Assembly: GCF_003096415.1 (NCBI RefSeq)
Contig: NZ_QEKH01000003.1
Span: 124,001-188,000 of the forward strand
Reading direction: 5' to 3'
Length of the DNA: 64,000 nt
Source: Victivallis vadensis
GTDB taxonomy: Bacteria; Verrucomicrobiota; Lentisphaeria; Victivallales; Victivallaceae
Shown piece after piece: positions 18,265 through 64,000 of this stretch (the stretch's first letter is position 1; the number at the start of each line of letters is the position of its first letter). The position numbers and the translations under genes are program-made. The notes beneath the pieces are model-generated. The model had not been told where the DNA came from, searched no databases, and was given only the letters and a program-made list of their open reading frames with translations.

Positions 18265-18274
18265 GAGGATCGTG

Positions 18275-44869: not shown

Positions 44870-45759
44870 GTCCCCCTCCAACCGTAGTGGATTAGAAACT
44901 CCGCGCGGAGGTCAAGCGCATCATCCATGCTGTCGTCCCCCTCCAACCGTAGTGGATTAGAAACCATTCGCGCGCTGCAAGGCAAGCTGGCGCCGGATCG
45001 GTCCCCCTCCAACCGTAGTGGATTAGAAACAAATAGGCCATCTTCAGCACGTCGAACGCATCGTGAGTCCCCCTCCAACCGTAGTGGATTAGAAACCTTC
45101 AATATTCAGATCCGCGGGCTTGTCGAGCGCGGGTCCCCCTCCAACCGTAGTGGATTAGAAACGTAAATTGTTTGATTCGTTCGGGCCGGAAGGCTGTGTG
45201 TCCCCCTCCAACCGTAGTGGATTAGAAACCCGTTGCAGCAGCGATTGAATATCTCAAGCAGGAGGTGTCCCCCTCCAACCGTAGTGGATTAGAAACACTC
45301 TTTCAAGAATATTGTTATCGCCGGTAGCGGCGGTCCCCCTCCAACCGTAGTGGATTAGAAACGTGCTTGTGCGTCAGGCACAATTGGAGCGGCTGCTCCG
45401 TCCCCCTCCAACCGTAGTGGATTAGAAACCATAATGATCCGTTACGCCAATCCGTCGCGCTCATGGGTCCCCCTCCAACCGTAGTGGATTAGAAACTGGG
45501 TATGGGTGATTGAGTTCAAGCAAATCGAGGTGTCCCCCTCCAACCGTAGTGGATTAGAAACCCCGGTGAAGCTGCTGTTTCGGCAGCCGGATTTACCCGT
45601 CCCCCTCCAACCGTAGTGGATTAGAAACCTGCCCGTATTTGGCTGGAAGTAACCGATGTGAGAAGTCCCCCTCCAACCGTAGTGGATTAGAAACCGCGAA
45701 TGCGAGCGTTTAATGGGGTTTCCGGACGAGTCCCCCTCCAACCGTAGTGGATTAGAAAC
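44870..45759 (+). CRISPR. CRISPR array: 14 repeats of 30 bp, 13 spacers of 35-37 bp
   Basis: The repeat starts GTCCCCCTCC and ends GTAGTGGATTAGAAAC. Repeats begin at 44870, 44935, 45001, 45067, 45133, 45200, 45267, 45333, 45400, 45467, 45532, 45599, 45665 and 45730, and all read as identical. The ATTAGAAAC end resembles the 8-nt handle of Cas6-processed systems, which sets the direction as plus. Even the last repeat is perfect. Thirty-one bp of spacer-like DNA follow before the putative prophage end. By eye no spacer matched the prophage part in the window. Confidence 0.97.
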
Positions 45760-48181: not shown

Positions 48182-48892
48182 TTATGTGGTCGCGTTGTAA
48201 TGTATTGTAGTGGTATCCGGTGCGCCCCACGGTGCGCCGGACACTGCACCCTCCGCAAAGCCGCAGTAGATGTCGGTTAAGTTGGTACAGTTGTGAAACG
48301 CCAAGTACCCGATACTGGTGACGCTGGCCGGTATCGTGATACTGGGTAGATTGGTACAGCCGGAAAACGCACTGCTTTCAATACTGGTGACGCTACTTGG
48401 AATCGTGATCGAAGTCAACGCGCTACAGCGGAAGAACGCGCCGGATTCGATACTGGTGACGCCGTTCGGTATCGTGACTGAAGTCAAAGCGGCACAATTG
48501 TCAAACGCATAACTTCCGATGCTGGTGACGCTATTCGGAATCGTGATCGAGGTCAAGCCGGTACAGCCCCTAAACGCAACGGGCCCGATACTGGTGACGC
48601 TGCCCGGTAGTGTGACCGAGGTCAACGCGGCACAATCGGAAAACGCGCCGTATCCGATACTGGTGACGCTGGCCGGAATCGTGATCGAGGTCAAGCTGCT
48701 ACAGCCCCAAAACGCATACTTTCCGATGCTGGTGACGCTGCTCGGAATCGTGACCGAAGCCGCAGTTCGTTCGACCAGGGATTTACCGGCATTCATTACC
48801 CGGATCATGTCTGCAATGCTCATGCTGCCGCTGATGCCGTAGTGAGCCCTGATTTGATCGGCGATTGCCGTTAATTTTTCTGAAACGCTCAT
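48182..48892 (-). CDS. Prophage leucine-rich-repeat protein (LRR_5/BspA type), copy 1
   Basis: A 236-residue protein. An N-terminal helical part (SVSEKLTAIADQIRAHYGIS) is followed by about seven 23-residue repeats of the form S-x-TSI-x-x-xAF-x-x-C-x-x-LTSITIP, the BspA-like LRR_5 pattern. It closes with [20 protein letters not shown]. Such repeats usually bind surface partners. Its position after the tail fibres suggests receptor binding. The start overlaps the stop of copy 2 (ATGA); an ATG one codon upstream is possible. Confidence 0.85.
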   Translation of the reverse strand: MSVSEKLTAIADQIRAHYGISGSMSIADMIRVMNAGKSLVERTAASVTIPSSVTSIGKYAFWGCSSLTSITIPASVTSIGYGAFSDCAALTSVTLPGSVTSIGPVAFRGCTGLTSITIPNSVTSIGSYAFDNCAALTSVTIPNGVTSIESGAFFRCSALTSITIPSSVTSIESSAFSGCTNLPSITIPASVTSIGYLAFHNCTNLTDIYCGFAEGAVSGAPWGAPDTTTIHYNATT

Positions 48893-49491
48893 CATGCCGC
48901 TCCGTAATGTATTGTAGTGGTATCCGGTGCGCCCCATGGTGCGCCGGACACCGCACCCTCCGCAAAGCCGCAGTAGATGTCGGTTAAGTTGATGCAGCTC
49001 TCAAACGCACTGTCTCCGATGCTGGTAACGCTGCCTGGAATTGTGACCGAGGCCAATGCGGTACAGCCCCAAAACGCACCGCCTCCGATGTTGTTTACAC
49101 TATTCGGTATCGTGACCGAGGCTAACGCGGCACAGCTAATAAACGCATAACGTCCGATGCGGGTGACGCTGCTCGGTAGTGTGATCGAGGTCAAAGCGAC
49201 ACAATCGGAAAACGCATTGTCTTCAATACTGGTGACACCGTTCGGAATCGTGATCGAGGTCAAAGCAGTACAGCCGGAAAACGCCCTGATTCCGATGCAG
49301 GTGGCGCCGTTCGGAATCGTGATCGAGGTCGCGGTTCGTTCGATCAGGGATTTGAGAAAGTCGTCGCGCCACTCCGCCGCGCCGAGCAGCGTCGCCATAT
49401 CATCGAGCGACATCGCGCCGGTTCCCTCCGGGGCGGCGATTTCCCGGATCGCGTTCGCCAGCGCGGTCAGTTGATTGTCGAGTTCACTCAT
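48892..49491 (-). CDS. Prophage leucine-rich-repeat protein (LRR_5/BspA type), copy 2
   Basis: A 199-residue relative of the next gene. It has a helical start ([20 protein letters not shown]), about five LRR_5 repeats ([20 protein letters not shown] and similar) and the same closing segment [23 protein letters not shown] identity with copy 1 is highest at the 3' end (48196-48275 versus 48903-48985), while repeat number and the N-terminus differ. This suggests duplication followed by repeat gain or loss. Confidence 0.85.
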
Positions 49492-51519: not shown

Positions 51520-53862
51520 TTAAACCTCCTGATCAAAATAAATGAATGTTTCACCGTCGAGCAGATTGAACTCCCCGAACGCGCGGTATTCCACGCCGTC
51601 AAGCGTCAGCGCAACGCCGTTCGCGCCGGAGCCCGCTGCGCCGTTGTCGGTTTCAAACGCGGTTTTTCCGCCCAGCCCGTCGTCTTTGGTCACGATGCAG
51701 CCGGCCGGGACCAGCGCGAACACCACCGCTCCGGCAGGGGCCTCGATTGCAATTTTGCCGGTCGGAAGCGGCCCCGAAACCACGGTTTCGGCGGTCAGCA
51801 TGTCGGAAGTGATGTCCGCGACGCGCCAGGTGACGCCGTCGGCGATGTAGCCGTAGTGCATGGTTTGCGGCGTTATGATTCCGGCGACGGTTCCGGTCAC
51901 GGTGATGACCAGCGTTTCGGTTCCGGCGGTCGCCGTGACCGTCGCGACGGTTGCGCCCGCCTCCTGCAGCGTGCCGGAGATTTTGCCGTCCGCCAGCGTC
52001 AGCCCGGCCGGAAGCGTGCCGGAGGTGAGATCATAAGTCACCGTTTCCTCTTTCAGGCTCACCGCGTCGAATGCGATATCCACCGCGTCGCCGACCGTCC
52101 CGGTGATCGCGTAGCTGGTGGTTCCGGTCAGAATCGCGGTGCCGAGCCAGGCGAAGAGCTTGCGCAGAAAAATCGGATATTGCATGTCGCCGCCCTGATC
52201 CAGATATTCCTGATACATTGTTTTTTCAAGCAGTCCCTGCGCGAAACGGATGCGGCCGCCGCGGGAAAGGTCGAGCGTCTGATCTGTAAAATAAATATGG
52301 GTCTTGTTGTCGGTGTCGCAGTAATGGATCGTGACGCGGTGCGTCACGTCCAGCGTCTTGACTTCCCCCGGATCGGCCGGATCGTCAAAGTAGAGTTCAA
52401 CGGTGGCGATCGGCTTGACGCCGGTCAGCGCAACCGCGTTGGCGATGATCTCCAGCGCGCCGTTTTCGCCGGTGCCGAATTTGATCGGAGAGGCGACCGA
52501 AGCGTTCTCACCGCGCGGTCCGGCCGGGCCGACCGGGCCGACCGGGCCAACCGGGCCTTCCGGGCCGCAGTAGAGGCGGAGTCCCGCGCTCCATGCGCCG
52601 AGGTCGGCCGCCGTTTTCTGGTAATAGAGCTGATACTTCTGCGCGGTCGCGGCAATCCTGCAGATTTCGGTCTTGAGTTCGTTGTCGGAATAGAGCGCAT
52701 CGAGCGGCGACGGGCAGGACAATTCCGTGTAGACCGTCGTTTCCCCGTCCGTCCAGGCATAGGCTTTGGCGCCGTTGTCGCCGGCTTCCGCCCGGGCGAA
52801 CACCGCGCCGGACTCCCGCGCCGTGACCGATTCGCAGTAAAGGTCTGTCGCCATGTAACGAAAGCCGCGGTCGGCGGCATCGTAGTTGTGGCGGTTCGCC
52901 AGCGTGCCGGTCGCATCGATCGCCAGACCGTCGCCGGGTTCGCCTTGAATGCCCTGCGGTCCCTGCTTGCCGTCGTCGCCCTTGAGTCCCTGAATGCCCT
53001 GTTTCCCCTCCGGACCCTGCTTGCCTTCCGGCCCCTGCTTGCCTTCCGGACCCTGTTTGCCTTCCGGACCGGGCACCGTCGTCAGCGGCGCGCCGGCGGT
53101 CCAGGCCCCGCCGATGAACCAGTAGACTTTGCCCTCATCGGTCGAAACGAAACAGCTTCCCTCCGCCGCATTTTCCGGACGGTCGGCAACCGGGCCGGTC
53201 GCATCCGGCGCCACGGTAAGGCCGTCCTCTCCGTAGGGAATCGGCTGCGGATCGCTCCACGTGCCGTCCTCGCCGTGCCTGACGCGCTGAAACCGGTCGA
53301 CATGGTTCACACATTCCGAATGCCACGAAACGCCATCGGCGGAGTATTCCCAGTACAGCTTCTGCGCCAGCACGCCCTTCGTCCACGATTTGCTCGCCAG
53401 ATCGGAATCCGGTTCCGCCGGAACTTCCCCGCCCTCCGGATCGACCGCGCCGCGACAGGTGATGTCGATCTGCACGATCAGAACCGCATCGCCCGCGTCG
53501 TCGAAGCCGCGCAGCTCGAAAACAGCGTCGACGCTTTTCTTGTTGTCGAGCTTTTCAAGGAAAACGGCGGTGTTGGCGTCCACCGGAACGCCGATCACGC
53601 CCTCGGCGGCGCGGCTCTTGTCGATGCCGTCCACGGTGCGGCACATCGGAACGGTGGCGCCGTCCCAGTCGACATCGACCGCCGCACGCAGGCTGACGAC
53701 CTCGGAGAGATCCGCCGCCGTCCATTCGGAACCCGGTTCCCCCTCGAAAAAGTGCAGCTCCCACATCGGCCGCTCACCGAAAAAGAGCAGCGGCTTCGTG
53801 TTGATCCGGCAGTTGTCCAGATTTACCGGCACCTGCCGCGTCAGATTATAGCACAATATCAT
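51520..53862 (-). CDS. Prophage tail/baseplate-associated protein with collagen-like stretches
   Basis: The ATG at 53862 overlaps the previous stop (ATGA), giving 780 residues. It contains PEGKQGPEGKQGPEGKQG (near 275) and PEGPVGPVGPVGPAGPRG (near 440), i.e. triple-helix-type Gly-x-y repeats. The C-terminus has bacterial-Ig-like segments (SGTLPAGLTLADGKISGTL, a putative Ig or cadherin-like repeat). It likely belongs to the tail tip or fibre complex. Confidence 0.7.
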   Translation of the reverse strand: MILCYNLTRQVPVNLDNCRINTKPLLFFGERPMWELHFFEGEPGSEWTAADLSEVVSLRAAVDVDWDGATVPMCRTVDGIDKSRAAEGVIGVPVDANTAVFLEKLDNKKSVDAVFELRGFDDAGDAVLIVQIDITCRGAVDPEGGEVPAEPDSDLASKSWTKGVLAQKLYWEYSADGVSWHSECVNHVDRFQRVRHGEDGTWSDPQPIPYGEDGLTVAPDATGPVADRPENAAEGSCFVSTDEGKVYWFIGGAWTAGAPLTTVPGPEGKQGPEGKQGPEGKQGPEGKQGIQGLKGDDGKQGPQGIQGEPGDGLAIDATGTLANRHNYDAADRGFRYMATDLYCESVTARESGAVFARAEAGDNGAKAYAWTDGETTVYTELSCPSPLDALYSDNELKTEICRIAATAQKYQLYYQKTAADLGAWSAGLRLYCGPEGPVGPVGPVGPAGPRGENASVASPIKFGTGENGALEIIANAVALTGVKPIATVELYFDDPADPGEVKTLDVTHRVTIHYCDTDNKTHIYFTDQTLDLSRGGRIRFAQGLLEKTMYQEYLDQGGDMQYPIFLRKLFAWLGTAILTGTTSYAITGTVGDAVDIAFDAVSLKEETVTYDLTSGTLPAGLTLADGKISGTLQEAGATVATVTATAGTETLVITVTGTVAGIITPQTMHYGYIADGVTWRVADITSDMLTAETVVSGPLPTGKIAIEAPAGAVVFALVPAGCIVTKDDGLGGKTAFETDNGAAGSGANGVALTLDGVEYRAFGEFNLLDGETFIYFDQEV

Positions 53863-54803
53863 GACATCGCGTCCCCTTCCTTGAAATGAAACCAGCTTGT
53901 GTAGTCGGCGAACGCCGAACACTGCGTCGCCTCCCAGCCGTTGTAAGTCTCATGATCCTTCGTCGGCGTGGTGATCCCGGCGGTGAAATCGTCATTCCGA
54001 AACTCCACGAAAACGCCGTCGGCATCGGCGGTGAATTGATTCATCCCGATCGAAACGCCGGAACCGAAGAAATTTTCATCGTCGCCGCCGGCTCCGGCCA
54101 CTTTCATAAACAAATACACATTGCCGTCCGGCGTGAATCCCTCCGGCAGGTCCGCGTAAATCCTTTTTGTCACGGTCGCGTTGCAGCAGTAGGAACCCTC
54201 GCGCCAGCCGTGATCAGGGCCGTAGATGTTATGAATATAACTGGCGGGGAAACTTCCGTCCGAAGCGGGGCGCGCATCTTTCAGCGCCGCCGCGACCGCC
54301 GCCGCCGGGCTGGACGGTTCGCCGGTGTGAACGCTGCCGGAAACGTAATCGCACAGATATTGTACCGGCGCGTAGAGCAGCAAATTGATCGCCCGCATCC
54401 GCTGGATCGCCCAGGTCAGATTCCACTCCGGGGAGAGATCGCCTTTCTCCGGATCGGAGACCGCCTTTTCATCGCCTCCGGCGGCTTCCAGCAGCAACTC
54501 GTCCCACGTCCACATGATGTCGGCCCAGTCCGTCAGGCCGGAAAAATCGAGCAGGGTGTGGTTGAAATAACGCCTCGCGACTTCCCGGAGCTCCCGGTCG
54601 AACTCGCGGCACCAGGTCTGCCCGTCGCCGGAGGCGGCGAGCATCGGCAGATAATCGGTTTGCGCAATCGTCTCGACATCCCATTCTTTCGCGAACGGCA
54701 GCCGCCGCTCCTCCAGCGCCTTGCGCAGCCCCTCGGCCGGAGTCCGCGCCGGCAGAAAACCCGGCTGCGGAAAACCAAACGTCTGCCAATTTAACCCTTG
54801 CAT
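53859..54803 (-). CDS. Prophage structural protein of unknown function
   Basis: A 314-residue protein starting MQGLNWQTFGFPQPGFLP after an AGAGAGG ribosome site. It is rich in Trp and Tyr (WADIMWTWDELLLEA, YTSWFHFKEG) and has no recognised domain. Its place between tape-measure-side genes and fibres suggests a tail-tip protein. Confidence 0.55.
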   Translation of the reverse strand: MQGLNWQTFGFPQPGFLPARTPAEGLRKALEERRLPFAKEWDVETIAQTDYLPMLAASGDGQTWCREFDRELREVARRYFNHTLLDFSGLTDWADIMWTWDELLLEAAGGDEKAVSDPEKGDLSPEWNLTWAIQRMRAINLLLYAPVQYLCDYVSGSVHTGEPSSPAAAVAAALKDARPASDGSFPASYIHNIYGPDHGWREGSYCCNATVTKRIYADLPEGFTPDGNVYLFMKVAGAGGDDENFFGSGVSIGMNQFTADADGVFVEFRNDDFTAGITTPTKDHETYNGWEATQCSAFADYTSWFHFKEGDAMS

Positions 54804-54821
54804 GGCCTCTCTCCCTCTTTT

Positions 54822-54857
54822 GTCCGACCGGTCGGACTGGTCGGACTGGTCCGATGG
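54822..54857. repeat. Tandem 9-bp GTCSGAC array, locus 1
   Basis: Four 9-bp units (GTCCGACCG, GTCGGACTG twice, GTCCGATGG). The first two form a perfect 16-bp palindrome GTCCGACCGGTCGGAC. The array ends exactly at the stop codon of the gene at 54858. Confidence 0.9.
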
Positions 54858-55436
54858 TTATTTCACCCAGCGGCCGGTCACCTCAATGTCGCCGACCGGA
54901 TGCACCTGCGCGGCGCTCCAGCTTTTCGTATCGTCGTTGTAGGAGATTTCCGCGATCCGCAGGATGTAACGTTTTTCGTCCTTCGTTTCCGGCAGCGTTT
55001 CCTCCAGACTGAAAGTCGCGGTGTAATCCTCCGTTTCGTCATCATAAGTGATGTCGAGGATCACGACGCCGGCTTTCGGCGGCCACTCCTGGTCGGCGAT
55101 CTGCTTTCTCCGGCTGCCGATCGTCAGCATCCCGGCGACGCCGCTTTCGGAGGCGGTGTTGTGCAGCCTGACGACCTGCCCCGGATTTTCCTGTTCTTCG
55201 TCGACGGGTTCGACCGTGACCGCGAACGGGCCTTCGTCGCCCCCCGCGGTCACGCCGGCCGCGCCTCCGCCGGTGCTGCCGGCTGAGGCGGAGAACACCG
55301 TTCCGGCCGGAAGCCGCTGAATCCGGATGCCCGCCCCGGCGACGGGGCGGCAGCTCTGCAGATGGTCGATCAACTGGTTCCAGAGATCGTACAGAACAAT
55401 AAACTTGTCGTTTTTAAGCAGTTTGCGCGGCAGCAT
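54858..55436 (-). CDS. Prophage protein of unknown function
   Basis: The ATG at 55436 (MLPRKLLKNDKFIVLYDLWN) has AAAGGA upstream. An in-frame ATG at 55457 lies inside the 9-bp repeat and looks accidental. The 192-residue product has a Gly/Ala/Ser-rich linker (SASAGSTGGGAAGVTAGGDE) and a C-terminal beta-rich domain (VVILDITYDDETEDYTATFS). No family recognised. Confidence 0.55.
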   Translation of the reverse strand: MLPRKLLKNDKFIVLYDLWNQLIDHLQSCRPVAGAGIRIQRLPAGTVFSASAGSTGGGAAGVTAGGDEGPFAVTVEPVDEEQENPGQVVRLHNTASESGVAGMLTIGSRRKQIADQEWPPKAGVVILDITYDDETEDYTATFSLEETLPETKDEKRYILRIAEISYNDDTKSWSAAQVHPVGDIEVTGRWVK

Positions 55437-55448
55437 TTTTTCCTTTCC

Positions 55449-55484
55449 GTCCGACATGTCCGACTGGTCGGACCGGTCCGACTT
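55449..55484. repeat. Tandem 9-bp GTCSGAC array, locus 2
   Basis: Four units (GTCCGACAT, GTCCGACTG, GTCGGACCG, GTCCGACTT), including the perfect palindrome GTCGGACCGGTCCGAC at 55467-55482. It touches the stop codon of the gene ending at 55483. Confidence 0.9.
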
Positions 55485-56241
55485 AACTGTAAAGTTCCTT
55501 GTCCCATCCCTCTTCGTTGCCGGAGAGCGTCCAGGTCAGCGTCGCCAGCCAGTCGTTTCCATTCCAGGAGACGCCGGCGTCGTCACACTTCCAGTCGCCC
55601 CTTTTGATGCCGAAGTCGTTGTCCGGTTTCCCGATTTTATTCAGGTTGTTCGCAACCATTTTCCCCGCCGCGTTCGCCGAACGGAAGCGGGCTGTTTCGG
55701 TGACCGAATAGGTCGCCACGTCGTAGGTTTCGTAACCGGGCTTGACGGGGTCTTTCAGGATGTGCCAGCGGCCCTCTTTGCCGTTCGGCAGCTCGCCCGG
55801 CGTTTTGATCCAGGCGTATTTCTGAGAATCGGCGTGGTTGAGAACCGTGTCTTTCGCCGTTTCCCACCAGGAAGGAGCGGCTTTCACGCCGGGAGCCCCG
55901 GCCAGATAGCAGTTCCAGCGGGCCTGGTATTTTTTATGCGTTTCCAGCGGCATCGACAGCATCGAACCTTTCAACTGCGCCGATTTTTTGCCGTAGGCGT
56001 TGTCCGGCTTTTCGGTGAGTTCGCCGTCGGCGGCCAGAGTGAACCGCTGTTCGCAATGCCAGATGCGCGGGCTTTCCTGATAGACCCGGACGCTTTTGAG
56101 CTGCCCGTCGTCAGTGCAGGCTCCGACCGGCGTGCCGGCTGCTGTGGCGGCCATCTCCTCTTTCGAGCCGTTCCAGACGATCGTGGTGGTGATGCCGTCC
56201 GAAGTGCGCTCCGTCACCCGAGATTGAAACTTTACTCCCAT
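55483..56241 (-). CDS. Prophage tail-associated protein of unknown function
   Basis: The 252-residue protein starts MGVKFQSRVTERTSDGITTT after GGAGGAAAAGTC. It is rich in Trp and Lys (WETAKDTVLNHADSQKYAWI; GDWKCDDAGVSWNGNDWLATLTW), with a beta-strand pattern. It follows the tape measure gene, where distal tail proteins are usually encoded. No family recognised. Confidence 0.55.
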   Translation of the reverse strand: MGVKFQSRVTERTSDGITTTIVWNGSKEEMAATAAGTPVGACTDDGQLKSVRVYQESPRIWHCEQRFTLAADGELTEKPDNAYGKKSAQLKGSMLSMPLETHKKYQARWNCYLAGAPGVKAAPSWWETAKDTVLNHADSQKYAWIKTPGELPNGKEGRWHILKDPVKPGYETYDVATYSVTETARFRSANAAGKMVANNLNKIGKPDNDFGIKRGDWKCDDAGVSWNGNDWLATLTWTLSGNEEGWDKELYS

Positions 56242-56254
56242 GACTTTTCCTCCC

Positions 56255-56308
56255 GTCGGACCGGTCAGACGGGTCCGACCTGTCCGACTGGTCTGACTGG
56301 TCCGACAG
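56255..56308. repeat. Tandem 9-bp GTCSGAC array, locus 3
   Basis: Six 9-bp units from GTCGGACCG to GTCCGACAG, two of which carry a change at the centre or arm (GTCAGACGG, GTCTGACTG). The array lies one base from the tape measure stop codon. Confidence 0.9.
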
Positions 56309-56309
56309 C

Positions 56310-58424
56310 TTAAAACGTTCCAAGTTTTTCGCAGATTGCCGCGATCTGTTTCATCTGCTCAAGCTGCTGTTTGTTGGTGTTGGCGATTTCGCGGTTGATC
56401 TTGTCCGACTCCGGCAGCTTGGCGCCGCCGGCGAAACCGCCGCGTGCGGTCAGGCTGTTGGTCTTGACCGATGTGTCGCCGAGCGAGGTTTCCCGCGTGT
56501 TCGCCATCGCGTAACTGATGGCCGACAGTTGTTTGACCATCGCCGTTTCTTCCTCGGAAAGTTCGCCGCCTTTGGCTTTCCTGGCATCGCGCAGCGCCTT
56601 TTGCTCCTCGAACTCCCGGCCGCGTCCGGCTTTGGTCATCGCCTCGCCGTAAAGGCCGTAGGCCTGCTCCTGCAGGTTCTGCCGGAGGTTCAGTTCCTTC
56701 AAGGCCTTCCGCTGTTCGAGCAGTTCCTGTGTTTCCTCCTCGGTCAGCTTTTTGCCTTGACGTTTCATCTCCAGGCGGAGCTTTTCGGCTTCATAGGCTT
56801 CATAATTGCCGTCGACCAGAAGTTGCTGAAGAGCGACCTCCTCTTTGGCTTCCGCGATCTGTTTGGCCGTGTCCTGCTTCTGGAGGGCTTCCCGCTGTTC
56901 GAGGATTTTTTTCTTCTCCTCCTCGGAGAGTTTCAGATTCTGATCCTTGAGTTCTTTTTCCAGCTTCAGCACGGCGGCTTTTTCAAACTCCGCGGCGGCG
57001 ATCAGCTTGTTGTAATCAAGCTCATACTTCGCCTGGTCGGTAATCTTCTTGACGGCCTCCGCCCGCTGGCGGTTGAGAGTGTCGATCTGCTGCTCGAACG
57101 CATAAATTTTCTCATCTGATGCCAGGATTGCCTGCTTGGCCTGCAGAATCCGCTTTTCCGCGTCCAGCATACCATCCCGGTCACCAGCGCTCTTCGCTTT
57201 TTCATAATCGGTTTGCGCAGAACCGAGCGCGGCTTCCGCTTCGACCCGCTGCCGGCTGCTGCGCTCCGCATCGATTCCCTGACGGCGGTTTGCGATTTTG
57301 ACGTCGATGTCTTTGGCGGCATTGAAGGCGTCGTCGGATTTGCGCTGTCCAAAAGAACGGTTTCGTTCCTGATTCCCCTTTGCAAGGTCGGCATTTTCGG
57401 CCTGCCGCTTCGCGCGGAAGTCGGCAACGGGATCGGAGCGGCGCTGCTCGTGGAGCTGTCTGCGCAGCTCCGTCATGCGTTTTACGTTCTCCTCGATCTT
57501 CTGCCCGGCCTCTTTGGCGTCCGCTTCGCCGCCGAGCCGGACATCGCCGCCAAACCAGACCGGTATTCCCGCATTGTCGCGGACCTGCGCCTGAGCGGCA
57601 TTGTCGGATTGCAACTGCCTCAACTCGGTTTCCATTTCCGCGATCCGCCGGTCTTTGTCGCGCTGGAGCTTTTTCACCATCGCTTCATCGACGCCGGAGA
57701 GCTTGCCGGTGGTTTCATCCAGTTTGACGCCGAGGTCGCCGTAGGATTTGGTCAGGTCGGCGATCAGTTTCCGCGCTTCCGCTTTGTTGGAGTTGGAGAG
57801 CTGCTCCGCCGAACTCAATTCCGACAGGCGCGACAAATAACCATCCGACTTCTGCCGGAGCTGCTCGTTCGCTTCGGCGGCTTCCCGGATATTTGCCGCA
57901 TTCCGCTGCGCAAGTTCGCCGGCTTCCTTCATGCCGTTGATCCAGTTGCGGTAAGCTGTCACGGCGATTTTGCCGAGACTGGCGATTCCGGCCGCGATGA
58001 TTCCGATCGCCCCGCCGCCGGCCAGGAATTTTCCAAGAAAATTTCCGGCGCCGCCCCGCGTCTTGTTCATCTCCTCGCGAATCGCGCCGAAAGCCTGAGC
58101 CGCCTGCTCCCGCAACGATACCGGAATCAATTTCGCCAGAATCCCGCCGGTCTTCCGCGCGGCGGCATCAGTCTGTTCCAGCTCCTCGCGTACCGTTTCC
58201 AGCGGCGCGTCGTCGGCGGTCACGGGAACGTCGATCTCCGGCGTCGGCGTCTGGGCCAGCTCCTCCACGGCGGCCTTTGCCTGTGTGGTGTCGGCGGTGA
58301 CGGAAACCTGCCGGTCCGGCAGGTTCGCCAGACTGCCGGCCGCCGCGCGGCTTTCCGCTACCACCGCTTCCAGCTCCTTGCGGTACTCTGCGGCGTCGAG
58401 CGTTATTTTGCAGACTGTGGCCAT
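56310..58424 (-). CDS. Prophage tail tape measure-like protein
   Basis: The 704-residue protein begins with a KITLDAAEYRKELEAVVAES segment and phage tape-measure-type beta repeats (VSVTADTTQAKAAVEEL; VPVTADDAPLETV). A hydrophobic stretch (FLAGGGAIGIIAAGIASLGKIA, near 140) is followed by 500 residues of charged coiled coil. This order is typical of tape measure proteins that set tail length. The two genes upstream sit where tail assembly chaperones normally lie. Confidence 0.82.
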   Translation of the reverse strand: MATVCKITLDAAEYRKELEAVVAESRAAAGSLANLPDRQVSVTADTTQAKAAVEELAQTPTPEIDVPVTADDAPLETVREELEQTDAAARKTGGILAKLIPVSLREQAAQAFGAIREEMNKTRGGAGNFLGKFLAGGGAIGIIAAGIASLGKIAVTAYRNWINGMKEAGELAQRNAANIREAAEANEQLRQKSDGYLSRLSELSSAEQLSNSNKAEARKLIADLTKSYGDLGVKLDETTGKLSGVDEAMVKKLQRDKDRRIAEMETELRQLQSDNAAQAQVRDNAGIPVWFGGDVRLGGEADAKEAGQKIEENVKRMTELRRQLHEQRRSDPVADFRAKRQAENADLAKGNQERNRSFGQRKSDDAFNAAKDIDVKIANRRQGIDAERSSRQRVEAEAALGSAQTDYEKAKSAGDRDGMLDAEKRILQAKQAILASDEKIYAFEQQIDTLNRQRAEAVKKITDQAKYELDYNKLIAAAEFEKAAVLKLEKELKDQNLKLSEEEKKKILEQREALQKQDTAKQIAEAKEEVALQQLLVDGNYEAYEAEKLRLEMKRQGKKLTEEETQELLEQRKALKELNLRQNLQEQAYGLYGEAMTKAGRGREFEEQKALRDARKAKGGELSEEETAMVKQLSAISYAMANTRETSLGDTSVKTNSLTARGGFAGGAKLPESDKINREIANTNKQQLEQMKQIAAICEKLGTF

Positions 58425-58433
58425 AAATACTCC

Positions 58434-59147
58434 TCACTGTTGGTCCGACAAAAACTTTTCCGCAAGCTCATCGATTCGGGCGGATATCTGCGCCTCAAGT
58501 TCGGCGTCCGGCCGCCGGCGGAACCGGTGCGGTTCCGTGCTTTCGCGCCGGGCGAAGTTCACGTAGGCGCAGCAGACCGTCGAAAGGCTCATCCCGTGCA
58601 TGACCCGTTCCCACGGTTCGCCGGTTTCGCGCACCGCGACGCCGCAGATGCGGGTCAGCCATTCGGCGTCATAGCGCGGCGGCTCATCTGCAAGGTCGGC
58701 GGGCGGCATCAGCTCCAGCGGCCGGAAGGCGGCGTCGCGCCAGGCGGCGGCCTCCCGGTGAGCGTCCGCGGCCTCCAGCCCCGTCGCCGCGGCATAACCG
58801 GCGGCGGCTCCCGGTATCTCCCAGGGCGCCAGGCGCAGTTCCCGCAGATCGGGGGCGGAAAGGATGTAAAGCGCGACGTCGAGATCGATCGTCCGGATCG
58901 CGCCGCCGGTTGCGTACCGGTTCTCCAGCATCCACAGAAACGCCCATTTCGCGGCCGTCAGGGGCCGGACGGGAAGTTTCCCGATGCGGAAGTCGCCCAG
59001 GTTCATAACCTCCAGCAGCAGCCGCGTCTCGGCGTTTTTGTCGTATTTCAGGCTTTCCAGGCGGCGCAGCTCTCCGTCGCCGGCCAGAATCCGGTTGAAC
59101 TCCACACCGGCGAGCTGTTGAAGTTCAGCCGCGGCATATCGACTCAC
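58434..59147 (-). CDS. Prophage protein, possible tail assembly chaperone
   Basis: The 237-residue protein is mostly helical (TAAKWAFLWMLENRYATGG; WEIPGAAAGYAAATGLEAAD). It has no recognised motif, but the position directly before the tape measure gene is that of tail assembly chaperones. I saw no slippery heptamer that would suggest a programmed frameshift. Its ATG overlaps the stop of the gene before it. Confidence 0.5.
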   Translation of the reverse strand: MSRYAAAELQQLAGVEFNRILAGDGELRRLESLKYDKNAETRLLLEVMNLGDFRIGKLPVRPLTAAKWAFLWMLENRYATGGAIRTIDLDVALYILSAPDLRELRLAPWEIPGAAAGYAAATGLEAADAHREAAAWRDAAFRPLELMPPADLADEPPRYDAEWLTRICGVAVRETGEPWERVMHGMSLSTVCCAYVNFARRESTEPHRFRRRPDAELEAQISARIDELAEKFLSDQQ

Positions 59148-59485
59148 GATCCGCCTCCTTCGGCAGCCTCCATCGGAGCGGAACCGTTGATGCTGGCGGT
59201 CTTGTGGCCGTTGACGCCCTCCCTGACCGACACATTGTCGATCGTGTACTTTTTGCCGCCGATGGTCAGTTCGCCGCCGACGGTCAGCGCGGAAATATCA
59301 CCCTCCGCCACGACGTTTCCTTCGCACTGGATGGTCCTTTTCTTGCCGTACATATCGATCTGCTCGATGTTGCCGTCCTCGTCGATCGCCTCCGCGGTGG
59401 AGGCGGTTTCGCCGTAGGTGACGGTTTGCAGATGCAGCCCCGCCACGGCGTTTTTGAACGAGGCCAGGCCGAATACAATACTCAT
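59144..59485 (-). CDS. Prophage small structural protein of unknown function
   Basis: The ATG at 59485 (MSIVFGLASFKNAVAGLHLQ) has GAGGAG eight nt upstream. The 113-residue beta-rich protein contains LTVGGELTIGGKKYTIDNVS, a segment reminiscent of tail-tube or tail-completion folds. No secure family. Confidence 0.5.
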   Translation of the reverse strand: MSIVFGLASFKNAVAGLHLQTVTYGETASTAEAIDEDGNIEQIDMYGKKRTIQCEGNVVAEGDISALTVGGELTIGGKKYTIDNVSVREGVNGHKTASINGSAPMEAAEGGGS

Positions 59486-59504
59486 AATCAAAACTCCTCT
59501 GATA

Positions 59505-59549
59505 GTCGGACCTGTCCGACCGGTCTGACAAGTCCGACAGGTCCGACGG
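59505..59549. repeat. Tandem 9-bp GTCSGAC array, locus 4
   Basis: Five units (GTCGGACCT, GTCCGACCG, GTCTGACAA, GTCCGACAG, GTCCGACGG) between the stop of the gene at 59550 and the ribosome site of the next gene. Confidence 0.9.
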
Positions 59550-59960
59550 TTAAATCCCTTGACTGACGATCAGCCCCAACGCCATTGCGGCGAAGTCCGC
59601 TTTGGGAGAGGACGCAAGGCAGTCCTCCGGGCGAATGAAGACGTCGCCGAGCGTCCGGCCTTCCGGCGGAAACAGCTCGAGCAGTTTCTCCGACGCCTCG
59701 AACAGCCCGAGCGCCCGGTCGTCGCTGCCTTTCCGGAAGCGGTCGATCAGGACCAGGGTGATCCGGTCCTCCCGGATCGTGCCGGTCGCGACAAACTGGA
59801 AGTTGTCGAAGACGACCAGCACGCCCGGCAGTTTGTCCGGGTTGACCGCGGTGAGTTCGGCGAGAAACTGGTCGGCGTTCTGGATGGCGGTCACGCGCAC
59901 CGTCCGGAAGTGTTCGCCGAGCAGTTCCCGCAGTTCCCGCGCAATCTCATGCAGCTTCAT
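59550..59960 (-). CDS. Mu gp37-like (DUF1834) tail completion protein
   Basis: A 136-residue protein with the features of the gp37 family: an N-terminal helix (LHEIARELRELLGEHFRTVRV), LPGVLVVFDNFQF and a C-terminal strand with ITLVLIDRFRKG. In Mu-like phages it follows gp36, as here, and helps complete the head-tail joint. Start and stop abut the neighbours. Confidence 0.65.
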   Translation of the reverse strand: MKLHEIARELRELLGEHFRTVRVTAIQNADQFLAELTAVNPDKLPGVLVVFDNFQFVATGTIREDRITLVLIDRFRKGSDDRALGLFEASEKLLELFPPEGRTLGDVFIRPEDCLASSPKADFAAMALGLIVSQGI

Positions 59961-60365
59961 TCAAAACCCCTCCATGTTGTCGCGCCCGAAGACCTCCGGG
60001 TCGCTCTGGTGGAGCGTGAACACGTTCGTGCTGTTCTCCGTCGCATCCGGCAGCAGGAAAAGGCCGCTGCGAATCTCCTCAAGGTATTTGCGCACCTGCG
60101 CGACCCGTGAGCTGACCTTTTCGGAATACTCGGCACCGGCGGCGCGGGCGTAGGCCCGCTCCTCGGCCAGCGTCAGCGTCCATCCCTTCAGCAGCGGCAG
60201 CGACGCAGCCGCCGTCACCGGGACCGCGTAACGGCGGCCGATGCAGCCGTTGATCTCGGCTTCCGCATCGGTCAGGTCAGTCACGGCGTCCGTCTCTTCA
60301 GAGTAAATCTCATCGAAGACGGTCTCCCCGATCCTGACGCGCAGTTCATCCGCGTCGGCGTACAT
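59961..60365 (-). CDS. Mu gp36-like (DUF1320) head-tail connector
   Basis: The 134-residue protein has the gp36 pattern: YADADELRVRIGETVFDEI, then DLTDAEAEINGCIGRRYAVPV and a helical C-terminus with KVSSRVAQVRKYLEEIRSG. It lies between the major capsid and gp37-like genes, the standard Mu-like order. Confidence 0.75.
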   Translation of the reverse strand: MYADADELRVRIGETVFDEIYSEETDAVTDLTDAEAEINGCIGRRYAVPVTAAASLPLLKGWTLTLAEERAYARAAGAEYSEKVSSRVAQVRKYLEEIRSGLFLLPDATENSTNVFTLHQSDPEVFGRDNMEGF

Positions 60366-60368
60366 CCG

Positions 60369-61580
60369 TCACGCCTGTGCGGCGGAGTTGACGGTCACGG
60401 TGTCGGCCGCGATGTTGACGCTGCGCTGATCGGTCGCGATCTCGGCGAGCGCGGCGGCCGGAGCCTTCAGGTTCTTGATCCGGCAGCACCGCTGGTTCGC
60501 GTTGTGGAATTCCAGCGTAAACTCGCCGACCATCTTCCGGCTGATTCCGTCAGCGTCCGGCGGCGTCGAATCGGTGTCCCCGACCGGGCGCATCCAACTG
60601 AGCGCGAAGCAGTCGTCGTCGCAGAGCCAGGCGTCCGCATCGTTGAAGTCGGGGTCCCCGATGATTTCGATGTTCTGGCCGTTCGCCTCGTTGACGACCA
60701 CCGCGACGTAGACGCCGCGCGCCTTGTCGTCGCGCATCACGGTGATGTTGTTCTTGTACTCGTTGGCCAGCACGCGCGCCTGATCCGGCGTGCAGTACAG
60801 CGCGGTCGGGTTGCCGCCTTCCTCGGTGACCTTCATCACCGCATCGTTGACCAGTTTGCTGGTCAGACGGCCGCCGGAAGCGTCCACGGCGAGCGCGGTC
60901 GCGAAGTTGTAAAGGCCGCCGGCCTCTCCGAACACGTCGTTCGCTTCATCGCGTTCGGTCCGGATGCCCCAGATCGCCTGACGGTTCATGTCGCGGTCGA
61001 TCTCCTGAAGGGCGAACTCCGTCTGCCGCGCGATGGAGTTCTCCACCTGGTCGATCGTCTTCGTGGCCAGCGCCGAATTGCTGATTCCGAGGTCCTTGCG
61101 GATGATCTGCGTATGATTGTACGCGCTGCCGACCGTCCGGCGGGTGTATTCGCCGTCGCCTTCGCGCGAGTTCTCCCGCACCGGCGTGCCGACGATCCGG
61201 CAGATGTCGCCCGCCGCGAGCGCGGTTTTGGCGGTGTCGCCGTTTGCCGCCACGACCGCGGCGGTGATCTTTTTGTCGGCCTCCTCCAGCGTGGCGACCT
61301 TGAATACGACCGGATGCCCGGCCACGGTGAAGCGCGTTCCGACTTTCACCCGCAGGAAGTCCGCGGCGGAAAGTGTCGCCTTGCCGGAGGCATACGCGGT
61401 CACGGTGAAGCCGCGCCCCTTGATCTGATCCTCCAGCCATTCGTGTTTGTGGTTGGTCGCCGGCGACGCCGACTTGAACCGGGACAGAAAACGTCCTTTC
61501 CCGGCGATCACGGTGTTCATCGCGCTCGAAAGGTCGCGCGCCTTGTTGGTCAGCGAATAGGTCTTGATTTCGTTCGGCAT
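60369..61580 (-). CDS. Major capsid protein, SU10/DUF5309-like
   Basis: The 403-residue protein begins EIKTYSLTNKARDLSSAMN, with FLSRFKSASPATNHKHEWLED typical of the SU10-like (DUF5309) HK97-fold major capsid group. EIIGDPDFNDADAWLCDDDCF and a late GEFTLEFHNANQRCCRIKNL are also family-like. It follows the protease/scaffold gene by 3 bp, the usual head-gene order. Confidence 0.8.
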   Translation of the reverse strand: MPNEIKTYSLTNKARDLSSAMNTVIAGKGRFLSRFKSASPATNHKHEWLEDQIKGRGFTVTAYASGKATLSAADFLRVKVGTRFTVAGHPVVFKVATLEEADKKITAAVVAANGDTAKTALAAGDICRIVGTPVRENSREGDGEYTRRTVGSAYNHTQIIRKDLGISNSALATKTIDQVENSIARQTEFALQEIDRDMNRQAIWGIRTERDEANDVFGEAGGLYNFATALAVDASGGRLTSKLVNDAVMKVTEEGGNPTALYCTPDQARVLANEYKNNITVMRDDKARGVYVAVVVNEANGQNIEIIGDPDFNDADAWLCDDDCFALSWMRPVGDTDSTPPDADGISRKMVGEFTLEFHNANQRCCRIKNLKAPAAALAEIATDQRSVNIAADTVTVNSAAQA

Positions 61581-61583
61581 TGC

Positions 61584-62099
61584 TTATCTCCTGATGGTTC
61601 TGGCGTTGTTGGTGGATTCGCGGATCGCCTTCTGCACGTCCGACAGCCCGGAGAGGTCGGACTCGGCCGGTTTGGCGTCAAGGTCCGACAGCTCCAGCAC
61701 GCCGACCGGGGCGAAGATGCCGTCCTGCAGGCTGTCGCAGTAGTCGGCGAGTTCCGCCGCGCTCATCTTTTTGATGTACGGCGTATCCAGCCGGGCCGGG
61801 GTCAGGACTCCGCGCCGGAAGCCTTCGGCGATGACCCGCCGGCGGTGTTCCGCCTCCTCGCGCTCCTGCCGCGCGGCTTCCGCGCACTCCAGAGCTTTGA
61901 CTTTTTCAGAAAGCTCCCCGGCCGCTTCCGCCTGGGTTTTCAGCGCGGCAAGGGTGACTTTGAGATTTTCCGGCGTCACGTCGTCGCCGAGCACCTCCTT
62001 CAGCACGGCGAGCAGTTCGCCGTCGGTTTTCTTCTCCGGTTCGGGTGCCGCGGGGGCGGCCGGTTCCGGAGCCGTCCGGGTCTTGGTTTCTTCAGGCAT
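61584..62099 (-). CDS. Nested scaffold protein from an internal start of the protease gene
   Basis: Within the protease gene an ATG (62099-62097) begins MPEETKTRTAPEPAAPAAPE. It is preceded at 5 nt by a perfect AGGAGG (62110-62105). The 171-residue product equals the C-terminal scaffold half, as in Mu, where gene Z lies inside gene I. The excess of free scaffold needed for head assembly would be supplied this way. Confidence 0.65.
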   Translation of the reverse strand: MPEETKTRTAPEPAAPAAPEPEKKTDGELLAVLKEVLGDDVTPENLKVTLAALKTQAEAAGELSEKVKALECAEAARQEREEAEHRRRVIAEGFRRGVLTPARLDTPYIKKMSAAELADYCDSLQDGIFAPVGVLELSDLDAKPAESDLSGLSDVQKAIRESTNNARTIRR

Positions 62100-62681
62100 C
62101 TTGGCCTCCTTTGATTGGGTTATGGATTCCTGTGCCGCCCGGACCTGCTCCGGGGTCACGTCGTCTTCATCTTCGCTCGCGGCGAGGTCCGCCGGATGCT
62201 GCAGACAGGGGTTGTTGGTCAGCGCCACGCTCTGGACGCGCAGCGGGCTTTTGCCGTCGAGTCCCCGGATCGACGGCGAGAAATAGCGGAACTGCCCCGC
62301 CTTCATCACCTCCCGGCCGATCGGCAGCCACTCCGCGTCGGTCAGATAGAGCGCGTCGCCGCGCGCCTCCAACCTGCCGAACCCCGCGACGCCGCTGTAA
62401 CGCGGCAGCTTCTTCAGGAGTTCGGTTTCGTCGATGCCGAGCTTGCCGGCCAGATTGCTGACCACGTGCTGGCAGTCGATCGGGATTTTCGCGCCCTTCG
62501 CCTGTTGATAGGCCGCGATGTCCTGCAGTTCCTGGGCTGAAAGTTCGAGGTTCACCGGCATCGAATCGCGCCGCGTGATGATGTTGTCCCCGGCGCGCAG
62601 GATCGGCCACGACACCGGCAGCCCTTCCGCGTCGCGTCCCACTTCCGACAGTTCCAGGCCGGAGTATTCCGTGATTTTCAT
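61584..62681 (-). CDS. Mu I-like prohead protease fused to scaffold domain
   Basis: The 365-residue protein has the Mu gpI-type protease part in residues 1-180 (DIAAYQQAKGAKIPIDCQHV, GRLEARGDALYLTDAEWLPI, FRYFSPSIRG and VALTNNPCLQ). The His in DCQHV and the Ser in FSPSI are likely catalytic. The rest (about 195-365) is an Ala/Glu-rich scaffold-like coiled region. A strong internal start lies at 62099. It should cut the scaffold and capsid during head maturation. Confidence 0.82.
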   Translation of the reverse strand: MKITEYSGLELSEVGRDAEGLPVSWPILRAGDNIITRRDSMPVNLELSAQELQDIAAYQQAKGAKIPIDCQHVVSNLAGKLGIDETELLKKLPRYSGVAGFGRLEARGDALYLTDAEWLPIGREVMKAGQFRYFSPSIRGLDGKSPLRVQSVALTNNPCLQHPADLAASEDEDDVTPEQVRAAQESITQSKEAKMPEETKTRTAPEPAAPAAPEPEKKTDGELLAVLKEVLGDDVTPENLKVTLAALKTQAEAAGELSEKVKALECAEAARQEREEAEHRRRVIAEGFRRGVLTPARLDTPYIKKMSAAELADYCDSLQDGIFAPVGVLELSDLDAKPAESDLSGLSDVQKAIRESTNNARTIRR

Positions 62682-62706
62682 TTGCGCAAACCTTTTGTTA
62701 GATAAT

Positions 62707-62742
62707 GTCGGACAAGTCCGACCAGTCAGACCTGTCCGACTT
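62707..62742. repeat. Tandem 9-bp GTCSGAC array, locus 5
   Basis: Four units (GTCGGACAA, GTCCGACCA, GTCAGACCT, GTCCGACTT) in the gap between the MuF-like gene and the protease gene. Confidence 0.9.
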
Positions 62743-62829
62743 GATTTTTCGGTAAAACGTGGTATAGTGAAAGTTGAGCGGTTTGGCGCGTTAGCTCACG
62801 ATTGAGTGTGCCTTTCGCCGCTCTTTTCT
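62741..62829 (+). ncRNA. Candidate small RNA opposite the prophage operon
   Basis: TTGATT (62741-62746), a 16-bp spacer and TATAGT (62763-62768) form a plus-strand promoter. The next 50 bases fold as GAGCGG/CCGCTC with an inner CTCA/TGAG hairpin and end in TTTTCTTATTT. This would make a short, highly structured RNA. It lies opposite the junction of the MuF and protease genes and could instead be only a terminator or a processing stem. Confidence 0.3.
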
Positions 62830-64000
62830 TATTTCAGCGTCCATTCCGAATCGCCGTAATCGTCACCGGCGTTGTTCCAGCTTACCAGCTTCAGCTCCTT
62901 GCCGTCCCACACCAGCACGCAGTAAGCCTGCGTCTGCGGATTGTGCAGCACGATCCGCTTCAGGCAAATCGGAACCTTTCTCATTTCTCTATGGGTTCCC
63001 TCCGTCACCATCGCCCGCTTCAGGCTGACGACGACGCGGCAGTTCTGGTTGCCGAGCGTTTCCTTCAGCAGCCGGATCGCAGCGTCCGGATCGGCGAACA
63101 GCTCCTTGTGGTTCCGCCACAGGTGTTCGATTCCATAATGCGGATTGCCGCGGCCGAGCTTGACCGGCAGCTCCGGCAGCCCGGCAGCCTCGGCGGCGCG
63201 CGGATTCAACTTTGCGACCTCGAACGGTTCCTTCGGGAACTTGTCGATCACGCTGCCGGGAACGTTCTTCCCCTGGCGGCCGGCCTGCTCGAACGCCCGG
63301 TTGACCTCCTTGTAGTCCGGCAGGCGATCCGGGTCAAGGCCGACCTTTTCAATTTCTTTCCTCGCGGATTCCTTCATCGCGTCGAAACCGTCCTTCACCG
63401 CACCGAGTTCCGGCAGCGGCGACGGCGCGGTCCCCTGAAGCGGCGGCGCGGCGATCAGCCCGACGCTGCCGAGCTCCTGATTCCGGACCGCCTCCTCGGC
63501 CTGGCGAACGATCGAAGCCCGGCTGACCGGATGCAGGCTGGATAAATCGTGCGTTTCAAACGCCTGCGCCGGGTCAAACGCAAAGCCGCTGCGGCTTTCG
63601 AGCTTCACCTGATCCGACGGCGTCGGCGTCTTGACCTTGCCTTTCCCCGCCCGCTTCTCGCTGCACTCCTCCAGTTCGCAGGTGCAGTTGAATTCCCACG
63701 GCGGCGTATGCGTCCGCAGCCACGGATCATCTTTTCGGATGATCATTCCATCGTATTTCTGATGGGAGGCGCGCGGTTTTTTGCTCCGTACCGACGCGCG
63801 GTAGATCACATACGGGAACGCCTCCAGATGGCCGGGAGAGTACATCCGCTCGTAAGTTCCGACCGCTTTCGCCATTTTCGCATTCTGGTCGATAATCAGA
63901 TTCAGCCGCGAAGTCGAACCGATGTTCGTCAGAGCGTTGCTCCCGTCATCCAGACCGTGCTGCCGGGCGAACCGGCGCATCCGGTTCCGGCATTCGTCCC
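62829..64000 (-). CDS. MuF-like minor head protein with C-terminal nuclease-like domain, 5' end outside window
   Basis: The frame is open to the window edge and continues upstream as DECRNRMRRFARQHGL. The N-terminal part has the phage Mu gpF / SPP1 gp7 pattern (SRLNLIIDQNAKMAKAVGTY, RASVRSKKPRASHQKYDGM, TPPWEFNCTCELEECSEK). After a linker of about 130 residues, a C-terminal domain (GRGNPHYGIEHLWRNHKELF, then KRIVLHNPQTQAYCVLVW and KLVSWNNAGDDYG) resembles the PBECR (Barnase-EndoU-colicin-RelE-like) nuclease domains that some MuF proteins carry. The nuclease reading is inference. Confidence 0.7.
   Translation of the reverse strand, partial: DECRNRMRRFARQHGLDDGSNALTNIGSTSRLNLIIDQNAKMAKAVGTYERMYSPGHLEAFPYVIYRASVRSKKPRASHQKYDGMIIRKDDPWLRTHTPPWEFNCTCELEECSEKRAGKGKVKTPTPSDQVKLESRSGFAFDPAQAFETHDLSSLHPVSRASIVRQAEEAVRNQELGSVGLIAAPPLQGTAPSPLPELGAVKDGFDAMKESARKEIEKVGLDPDRLPDYKEVNRAFEQAGRQGKNVPGSVIDKFPKEPFEVAKLNPRAAEAAGLPELPVKLGRGNPHYGIEHLWRNHKELFADPDAAIRLLKETLGNQNCRVVVSLKRAMVTEGTHREMRKVPICLKRIVLHNPQTQAYCVLVWDGKELKLVSWNNAGDDYGDSEWTLK

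What the first reader, a model, noticed from the sequence alone, without database searches (positions are those of the whole stretch)
54822..62742. Arrays of the palindrome GTCSGAC, 9-bp period, in prophage gene gaps
Five gaps (54822, 55449, 56255, 59505, 62707) hold four to six units of 9 bp, each GTC-S-GAC (self-complementary) plus two variable bases. From 53.8 to 62.9 kb every gap over about 10 bp contains one. Four of five begin within a base or so of the upstream gene's stop codon. None was seen in the host part. Neighbouring units form perfect 16-bp palindromes. Possible roles are transcription or translation attenuation, protein binding, recombination sites for phage modules, or protein-coding remnants (the unit reads as Ser-Asp-x).
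Basis: seen in the sequence. Interest (0 to 1): 0.75.

Follow-up and report, generated by a model that had tools for sequence, protein, structure and literature searches.

The report
Nine-base repeat arrays with partner gene
Short tandem arrays of a nine-base palindromic unit sit between (and sometimes inside) the genes of this prophage, and they belong to a widespread, apparently undescribed class of arrays that travels with one particular small helical-protein gene, which this prophage also carries.

Summary
The five arrays are real: 9-bp units GTC-N-GAC-NN, 4-6 units each, none expected by chance. The prophage runs past the window and holds 12 arrays in about 17 kb; the rest of the 5.2-Mb genome has essentially none. 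Most arrays fill the spacer between a stop codon and the next Shine-Dalgarno sequence; three outside the window lie in frame inside genes. Sister phages keep arrays at the same joints, with a conserved GTC.GAC core (3.7% differences) and free centre and spacer bases (51%). Array-free relatives simply lack the extra sequence.

They are not phage-specific: 40 of 388 genomes of the phylum have them. The strongest lead is a partner gene, a four-helix-bundle protein with suffix domain (TIGR02436+TIGR04258), which this prophage carries. Loci of that gene hold period-9 arrays in 18/30 cases versus 4/60 controls; other lineages use other units, mostly GTCC-type.

Best reading: the arrays are the cis-part of a gene-plus-array dispersing element (works like REP/RAYT, but unrelated), and they serve as module joints. 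The association is shown; the mechanism is inferred. RNA-hairpin regulation is possible but weakly supported.

The parts
54822..54855 (.). array of 4 units between the stop of gene 54858-55457(-) and the SD of gene 53859-54803(-)
   Evidence: array at the same joint in sister prophage L345:18364
55449..55482 (.). array of 4 units directly after the stop of gene 55483-56241(-)
   Evidence: the sister prophage has only a 9-nt gap here
56255..56306 (.). array of 6 units between genes 56310-58424(-) and 55483-56241(-)
   Evidence: sister array L345:16713 shares the first two units
58443..58449 (-). single unit (GTCGGAC on the minus strand) in frame at the C-terminal end of gene 58434-59147; four in-frame units in the sister phage
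59505..59547 (.). array of 5 units between genes 59550-59960(-) and 59144-59491(-)
   Evidence: sister array L345:13383; array-free relatives have stop-SD-start only
62707..62740 (.). array of 4 units upstream of the head protease gene 61584-62681(-)
   Evidence: arrays at the same joint in G003, G001 and viral contig L492
53859..62681 (-). prophage structural gene block in which the arrays lie (head-tail adaptor, major head, protease and tail-side genes)
   Evidence: The partner gene TIGR02436+TIGR04258 (C3:194553-195194, minus strand) and seven further arrays lie outside the window, about 6.5 kb beyond its right end for the gene

Best explanation
The arrays are the dispersed cis-part of a gene-plus-array element whose gene encodes a four-helix-bundle protein with a suffix domain (TIGR02436+TIGR04258, S23/IVP-like). 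SHOWN: the prophage carries this gene with arrays in and around it; such genes are strongly associated with period-9, mostly GTCC-type arrays across many families and more than one phylum; arrays lie at the same joints in sister phages with a conserved GTC.GAC core; they are extra sequence directly after stop codons or in protein linkers; one gene module has been gained or lost exactly between two arrays. INFERRED: the protein recognises the array (as DNA or as its self-complementary transcript) and causes its seeding, growth or upkeep; arrays survive where they do least harm (after a stop and before the Shine-Dalgarno, or in linkers, where the unit reads as Ser-Asp-x without stop codons); as repeated homology they then serve as joints for exchange of gene modules.
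For: The prophage gene is TIGR02436+TIGR04258 with arrays N-terminal to and inside it. TIGR04258 is in 35/42 GTCSGAC-array genomes versus 18/38 without. Period-9 arrays at 18/30 TIGR04258 loci versus 4/60 control loci, other periods not enriched. Five GTCC at 9-bp spacing: 33/53 gene-positive versus 5/27 gene-negative genomes; among genomes not chosen for arrays 10/18 versus 2/20. The gene-linked unit of G346 (GTCCCAA) is dispersed over that genome. Independent test: 6 of 117 stretches found only by the DNA pattern encode the gene next to or around arrays, about 0.5 expected, none in 60 control loci. Orthologous arrays: core 3.7% versus free positions 51% different. Sister phages G003 and L492. 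Module joint in G001.
Against: G003 has arrays but no detected TIGR04258; five of 27 gene-negative genomes have GTCC arrays; 20 of 53 gene-positive genomes have none; the second copy of the gene in this genome has no arrays nearby. Genomes are related and several are incomplete, so the p-values are indicative. No enzymatic activity is known for the family and no insertion event was observed directly; TerL points to in-place growth rather than insertion. Array recognition by core biases the conservation figure.
Confidence: 0.5

Rival explanations
1. Intercistronic RNA hairpins: the self-complementary units fold in the polycistronic late mRNA between stop codon and Shine-Dalgarno, stabilising the upstream cistron or limiting its translation, as E. 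coli REP/PU sequences do.
For: Stop-array-SD placement at most joints and its persistence in sister phages; units are self-complementary; purine-centred units come first and pyrimidine-centred last in 19 versus 2 arrays, as in an inverted repeat.
Against: Folding energies summed over 33 arrays are -607.9 versus -585.0 (sd 13.8) for permuted and -625.8 (sd 24) for random arrays with the same core. Array-free relatives have no replacement hairpin. Arrays also lie inside genes.
Confidence: 0.2
2. Neutral minisatellites: chance seeds grown by replication slippage and tolerated in spacers and linkers, with no partner protein.
For: Unit number differs between sister phages (1 versus 4); long homogeneous arrays in some host genomes.
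Against: Core conservation with free spacers, the same unit logic in distant phyla, and the link to one gene family.
Confidence: 0.15
3. Tandem operators, partition or origin sites bound by an unrelated phage or host DNA-binding protein.
For: Conserved pseudo-palindromic core at fixed 9-bp spacing. Several viral contigs hold inverted array pairs about 95-185 bp apart, some near Prim-Pol/VapE or DUF5906 genes.
Against: Arrays inside coding genes and in chromosomal restriction genes; no common DNA-binding gene other than TIGR04258 was noticed near arrays, although this was not surveyed fully.
Confidence: 0.1
4. Protein-level elements: Ser-Asp-x linkers are selected as peptides, and intergenic arrays are out-of-frame relics.
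For: In-frame Ser-Asp-x repeats in portal, TerL, HsdR, HsdM and the four-helix protein.
Against: Most arrays here are intergenic and the frame after the stop is not conserved; DNA core rather than peptide is conserved, including outside genes.
Confidence: 0.05

Closest known systems
REP / BIME / REPIN sequences with RAYT (Y1) transposase
   Same: A gene accompanied by dispersed, short, palindromic, mostly extragenic repeats
   Different: Here tandem 9-bp units and an S23-like helical protein; no Y1 transposase in this genome or in several array-rich ones
TIGR02436/TIGR04258 four-helix-bundle suffix proteins (NCBIfam)
   Same: The prophage protein is a member
   Different: No described link with nine-base arrays was found in the papers searched
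23S rRNA intervening sequences with S23 ORF (Coxiella; PMC4990558)
   Same: S23-type helical protein in a selfish element; tandem heptamers precede the ORF in Coxiella
   Different: Inserted in rRNA and excised by RNase III; not dispersed 9-bp arrays
Rickettsia palindromic elements (from memory)
   Same: Palindromic repeats found between genes and in frame inside genes
   Different: About 100-150 bp single elements, not 9-bp tandem units; no known partner gene
BrickBuilt minisatellite MITE of Porphyromonas gingivalis (PMC4596501)
   Same: Dispersed, intergenic tandem repeats
   Different: 23-nt unit carried in a MITE with terminal inverted repeats
Avd of diversity-generating retroelements (PMC10053308)
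   Same: Four-helix-bundle protein; PF05635 is said there to resemble Avd
   Different: No template/variable repeat pair or reverse transcriptase was noticed, and none was specifically sought; the suffix domain differs

Membership tests
REP/RAYT system | Y1-type transposase gene in the genome | tested here: not met
   PF01797 absent from G000 and from array-rich G016, G074, G036, G086, G075
REP/RAYT system | Dispersed extragenic palindromic repeats | tested here: met
REP/RAYT system | Single imperfect palindrome of about 20-40 nt as the unit | tested here: not met
   9-bp tandem units, 3 to more than 20 copies
TIGR02436+TIGR04258 four-helix-bundle suffix protein (the partner gene) | Profile scores above the curated cut-offs | tested here: met
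   78.6 bits (cut-off 40) and 27.6 bits (cut-off 24) for the prophage protein
23S rRNA intervening sequence | Insertion inside a 23S rRNA gene | tested here: not met
   arrays and gene lie in a prophage or beside protein genes
Diversity-generating retroelement | Reverse transcriptase with template and variable repeat | not tested
   no dedicated search was made
Phase-variable tandem repeat | Unit number varies within a population and switches a gene | not testable with these tools
   unit number differs between sister phages (1 versus 4), but 9 bp keeps frame and no population data are held
Known structured RNA (Rfam) | Match above the gathering score | tested here: not met
   only two sub-threshold matches in 53000-64000, neither at an array

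The most novel reading that the evidence does not exclude
A previously unrecognised two-part mobile system: an S23-like four-helix-bundle-suffix protein (TIGR04258) recognises and spreads lineage-specific arrays of nine-base units (mostly GTCC-N5) through bacterial and phage genomes, placing them between genes and, in frame, inside proteins, and creating joints for gene exchange.
Probability: 0.4. Interest if true: 0.88.

Novelty: categorically new. Interest (0 to 1): 0.74.

Why it matters
Tandem repeats in bacteria are usually treated as slippage noise or phase switches. Here one small, uncharacterised but strongly conserved protein family predicts where nine-base arrays occur, with different units in different lineages, across at least two phyla and in phages. 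If the link is causal, it gives a role to S23/IVP-type four-helix-bundle proteins, whose function is unknown, and a route by which repeats enter genes and phage modules are exchanged. It is directly testable by binding assays and by following arrays with and without the gene.

Tried and rejected
Chance or composition: rejected. A feature of the phage lineage defined by its capsid gene: 29 homologous capsid loci have no arrays within 1.5 kb. RAYT-driven REPs: no transposase. RNA hairpin selected through centre and spacer bases: not supported by energies, although the purine-to-pyrimidine order of centres stays unexplained. Mobile insertion of a whole array into TerL: the alignment shows only 3-5 extra residues, so in-place growth. 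Ser-Asp-x frame kept after the stop codon: not conserved between G003 and this phage. L395 was first taken for a prophage; it is a chromosomal type I restriction locus, so the 'phage-like' sets include one non-phage locus. Origin or operator reading for all arrays: fits a few viral contigs only. Most viral hits are collagen-like or other coding repeats and were not used. Strict specificity for period 9: period-10 GTCC arrays also exist. Literature: nothing on GTCCGAC arrays, SDx repeats or TIGR04258; the NCBIfam curator's comment on TIGR04258 could not be read.

Full report
OBSERVATION. The two-unit pattern has 9 matches in the window and none in 100 shuffles. In the whole 5.2-Mb genome 18 of 19 places fall in C3:178822-195480, that is in this prophage, which runs past the window's right edge. 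There it holds seven further arrays, twelve in all over about 17 kb. The surrounding genes are phage structural genes: portal, large terminase, minor head, protease, major head, head-tail adaptor, tail.

ANATOMY. On the transcribed (minus) strand the usual order is stop codon, array, Shine-Dalgarno, ATG, with 0-4 nt between stop and array for four of the five. Outside the window three arrays are inside genes and are read in frame as Ser-Asp-x: near the portal C-terminus (PDKPDRSDLSD), between the two domains of the large terminase (YWSDLSDLSGWSGR), and in a small helical protein (MSDQSDRSDKSD).

SISTER PHAGES. G003 carries a prophage with about 71% DNA identity over much of the structural block. 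It has arrays at the joints corresponding to 54822, 56255, 59505 and 62707, and in the same place of the portal gene. At the joint of 55449 it has only a 9-nt gap. At the joint near 58440 it has four in-frame units where this phage has one. Array-free relatives G006, G067 and G010 have at the 59505 joint just stop, Shine-Dalgarno and start, so the array is extra sequence after the stop. A third relative, IMG/VR contig L492, has an array at the joint before the protease gene. In orthologous arrays the six core positions differ in 3.7% of comparisons and the three free positions in 51%. Recognising arrays by their core biases this figure, but the contrast is very large.

MODULE JOINT. In G001 (about 80-82% identity) the region around L254:11156-11480 has one array where this phage has two, and the 258-bp module between the two, a small ORF that looks like a zinc ribbon, is missing. 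This is one clean example of a gene module gained or lost between arrays.

NOT PHAGE-SPECIFIC. GTCSGAC triple units occur in 40 of 388 genomes of the phylum, with 0 matches for the reversed pattern in every genome; counts reach 727. Pattern scans also returned Prevotella, Hydrogenedens, deltaproteobacterial and planctomycete contigs. Many arrays there are intergenic, a good part of them close to a stop codon. Actinobacterial hits (not examined singly) and most viral hits look like coding repeats and were set aside.

THE PARTNER GENE. The small helical protein with arrays in this prophage is a four-helix-bundle protein (TIGR02436) with the suffix domain TIGR04258. A homologue in a distant family (G341) sits in a type I restriction locus, with arrays at the same two positions of the protein and further in-frame arrays in hsdR and hsdM. 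TIGR04258 is present in 35 of 42 genomes with GTCSGAC arrays and in 18 of 38 without. At 30 TIGR04258 loci period-9 arrays were found in 18, against 4 of 60 control loci, and no other period from 5 to 15 is enriched (p about 1e-7). Many of these arrays have other units: GTCCCATAA in G061, GTCCCAAGN in G346, GTCCATCTT in G016, GTCCACNNN in G383, GTCYTACAR in G024. Five GTCC at 9-bp spacing are present in 33 of 53 gene-positive and 5 of 27 gene-negative genomes; among genomes not chosen for arrays, in 10 of 18 and 2 of 20. In G346, with 14 copies of the gene, the gene-linked unit GTCCCAA is dispersed over many contigs. Period-10 arrays exist too, but are fewer (about 275 pattern matches against about 2,160).

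INDEPENDENT TEST. The stretches found only by the DNA pattern were searched for the gene. Six of 117 genome stretches encode it, with arrays inside or within 143 bp, including Alloprevotella (Bacteroidota) and Hydrogenedens. About 0.5 would be expected from 1-3 copies per genome, and none of 60 control loci has it. The protein family is strongly conserved, with many invariant polar residues. The model of the L492 homologue is all-helical (mean pLDDT 87) and its best solved match is an S23-family protein, though not at a significant E-value.

MECHANISM. Shown: association of gene and arrays, conservation of the core, placement after stops and in linkers, change of unit number, one array-bounded module change. 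Inferred: the protein recognises arrays and promotes their seeding, growth or upkeep, and the arrays act as recombination joints. The element would work like REP/RAYT, a gene and its dispersed palindromic repeats, but it is not a member: the transposase is missing, and unit and protein differ. It also recalls the selfish 23S rRNA intervening sequences, whose S23 ORF in Coxiella follows tandem heptamers (PMC4990558).

RIVALS. An RNA-hairpin role fits the placement, and the purine-to-pyrimidine order of centres (19 to 2) is significant and unexplained. But folding energies are not better than those of random arrays with the same core, and relatives do without. Neutral slippage explains homogeneous arrays in some hosts, but not core conservation with free spacers, nor the gene link.

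CAVEATS. G003 has arrays but no detected TIGR04258; five gene-negative genomes have GTCC arrays; 20 gene-positive genomes lack them; the second copy of the gene in this genome has no arrays nearby. Genomes are related and partly incomplete, so p-values are indicative. Pattern counts are overlapping matches, not arrays.

NOVELTY. No paper found describes the arrays or the link. The gene-array system is rated categorically new with moderate confidence. If only the arrays are real and the gene is a passenger, it drops to a new kind of minisatellite.

Noticed in passing
L395 (G341:C54), arrays at 8222, 9361, 9790, 12947: A chromosomal type I restriction locus has in-frame Ser-Asp-x arrays in hsdR, hsdM and a four-helix-bundle gene lying between hsdR and hsdS.
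   Followed up: partly
L054, L057, L062, L068, L071, L076, L082, L105, L115; also L063, L122, L048, L114: Viral contigs with inverted pairs of three-unit arrays about 95-185 bp apart around A+T-rich DNA, some close to terminase or to Prim-Pol/VapE/DUF5906 genes; they look like origin or operator regions.
   Followed up: partly
L345, about 16740-16890 and 18220-18345 (G003 prophage): A second repeat of about 150 bp, rich in inverted repeats, sits next to two of the arrays in opposite orientations; MITE-like.
   Followed up: no
window 62776-62826 (minus strand) and L377 about 16700-16760: A stem-loop upstream of the protease gene, CTCAATCGTGAGCTAACGCG here and CCCAATCGTGGGTTAACGCG in G067, with paired changes in the stem (CTC/GAG to CCC/GGG); no Rfam match.
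   Followed up: no
mixed-centre arrays: Purine-centred units come first and pyrimidine-centred units last (19 to 2), on either strand; the opposite order is rare (12 to 1 in viral contigs). No explanation.
   Followed up: partly
L493 (Prevotella nigrescens, NZ_CP082843.1), about 5672-5698: A TIGR04258 gene in another phylum without GTCSGAC arrays, but followed by three 9-bp units CCTAGNNNN.
   Followed up: no
G346, G275, G258: Period-10 GTCC arrays (GTCCGTGNNN, GTCCGACNNN) occur beside period-9 ones in a few genomes.
   Followed up: no
window 60369-61580 and relatives: A homologous major head protein at about 42-49% identity is found in 30 of 60 related genomes, so this prophage type is very common in the family.
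   Followed up: no
window 45001-45229 and 48296-49330: Other tandem repeats: a 66-bp unit (3.5 copies) and 69-bp units (up to about 6 copies) near the tail end of the prophage.
   Followed up: no
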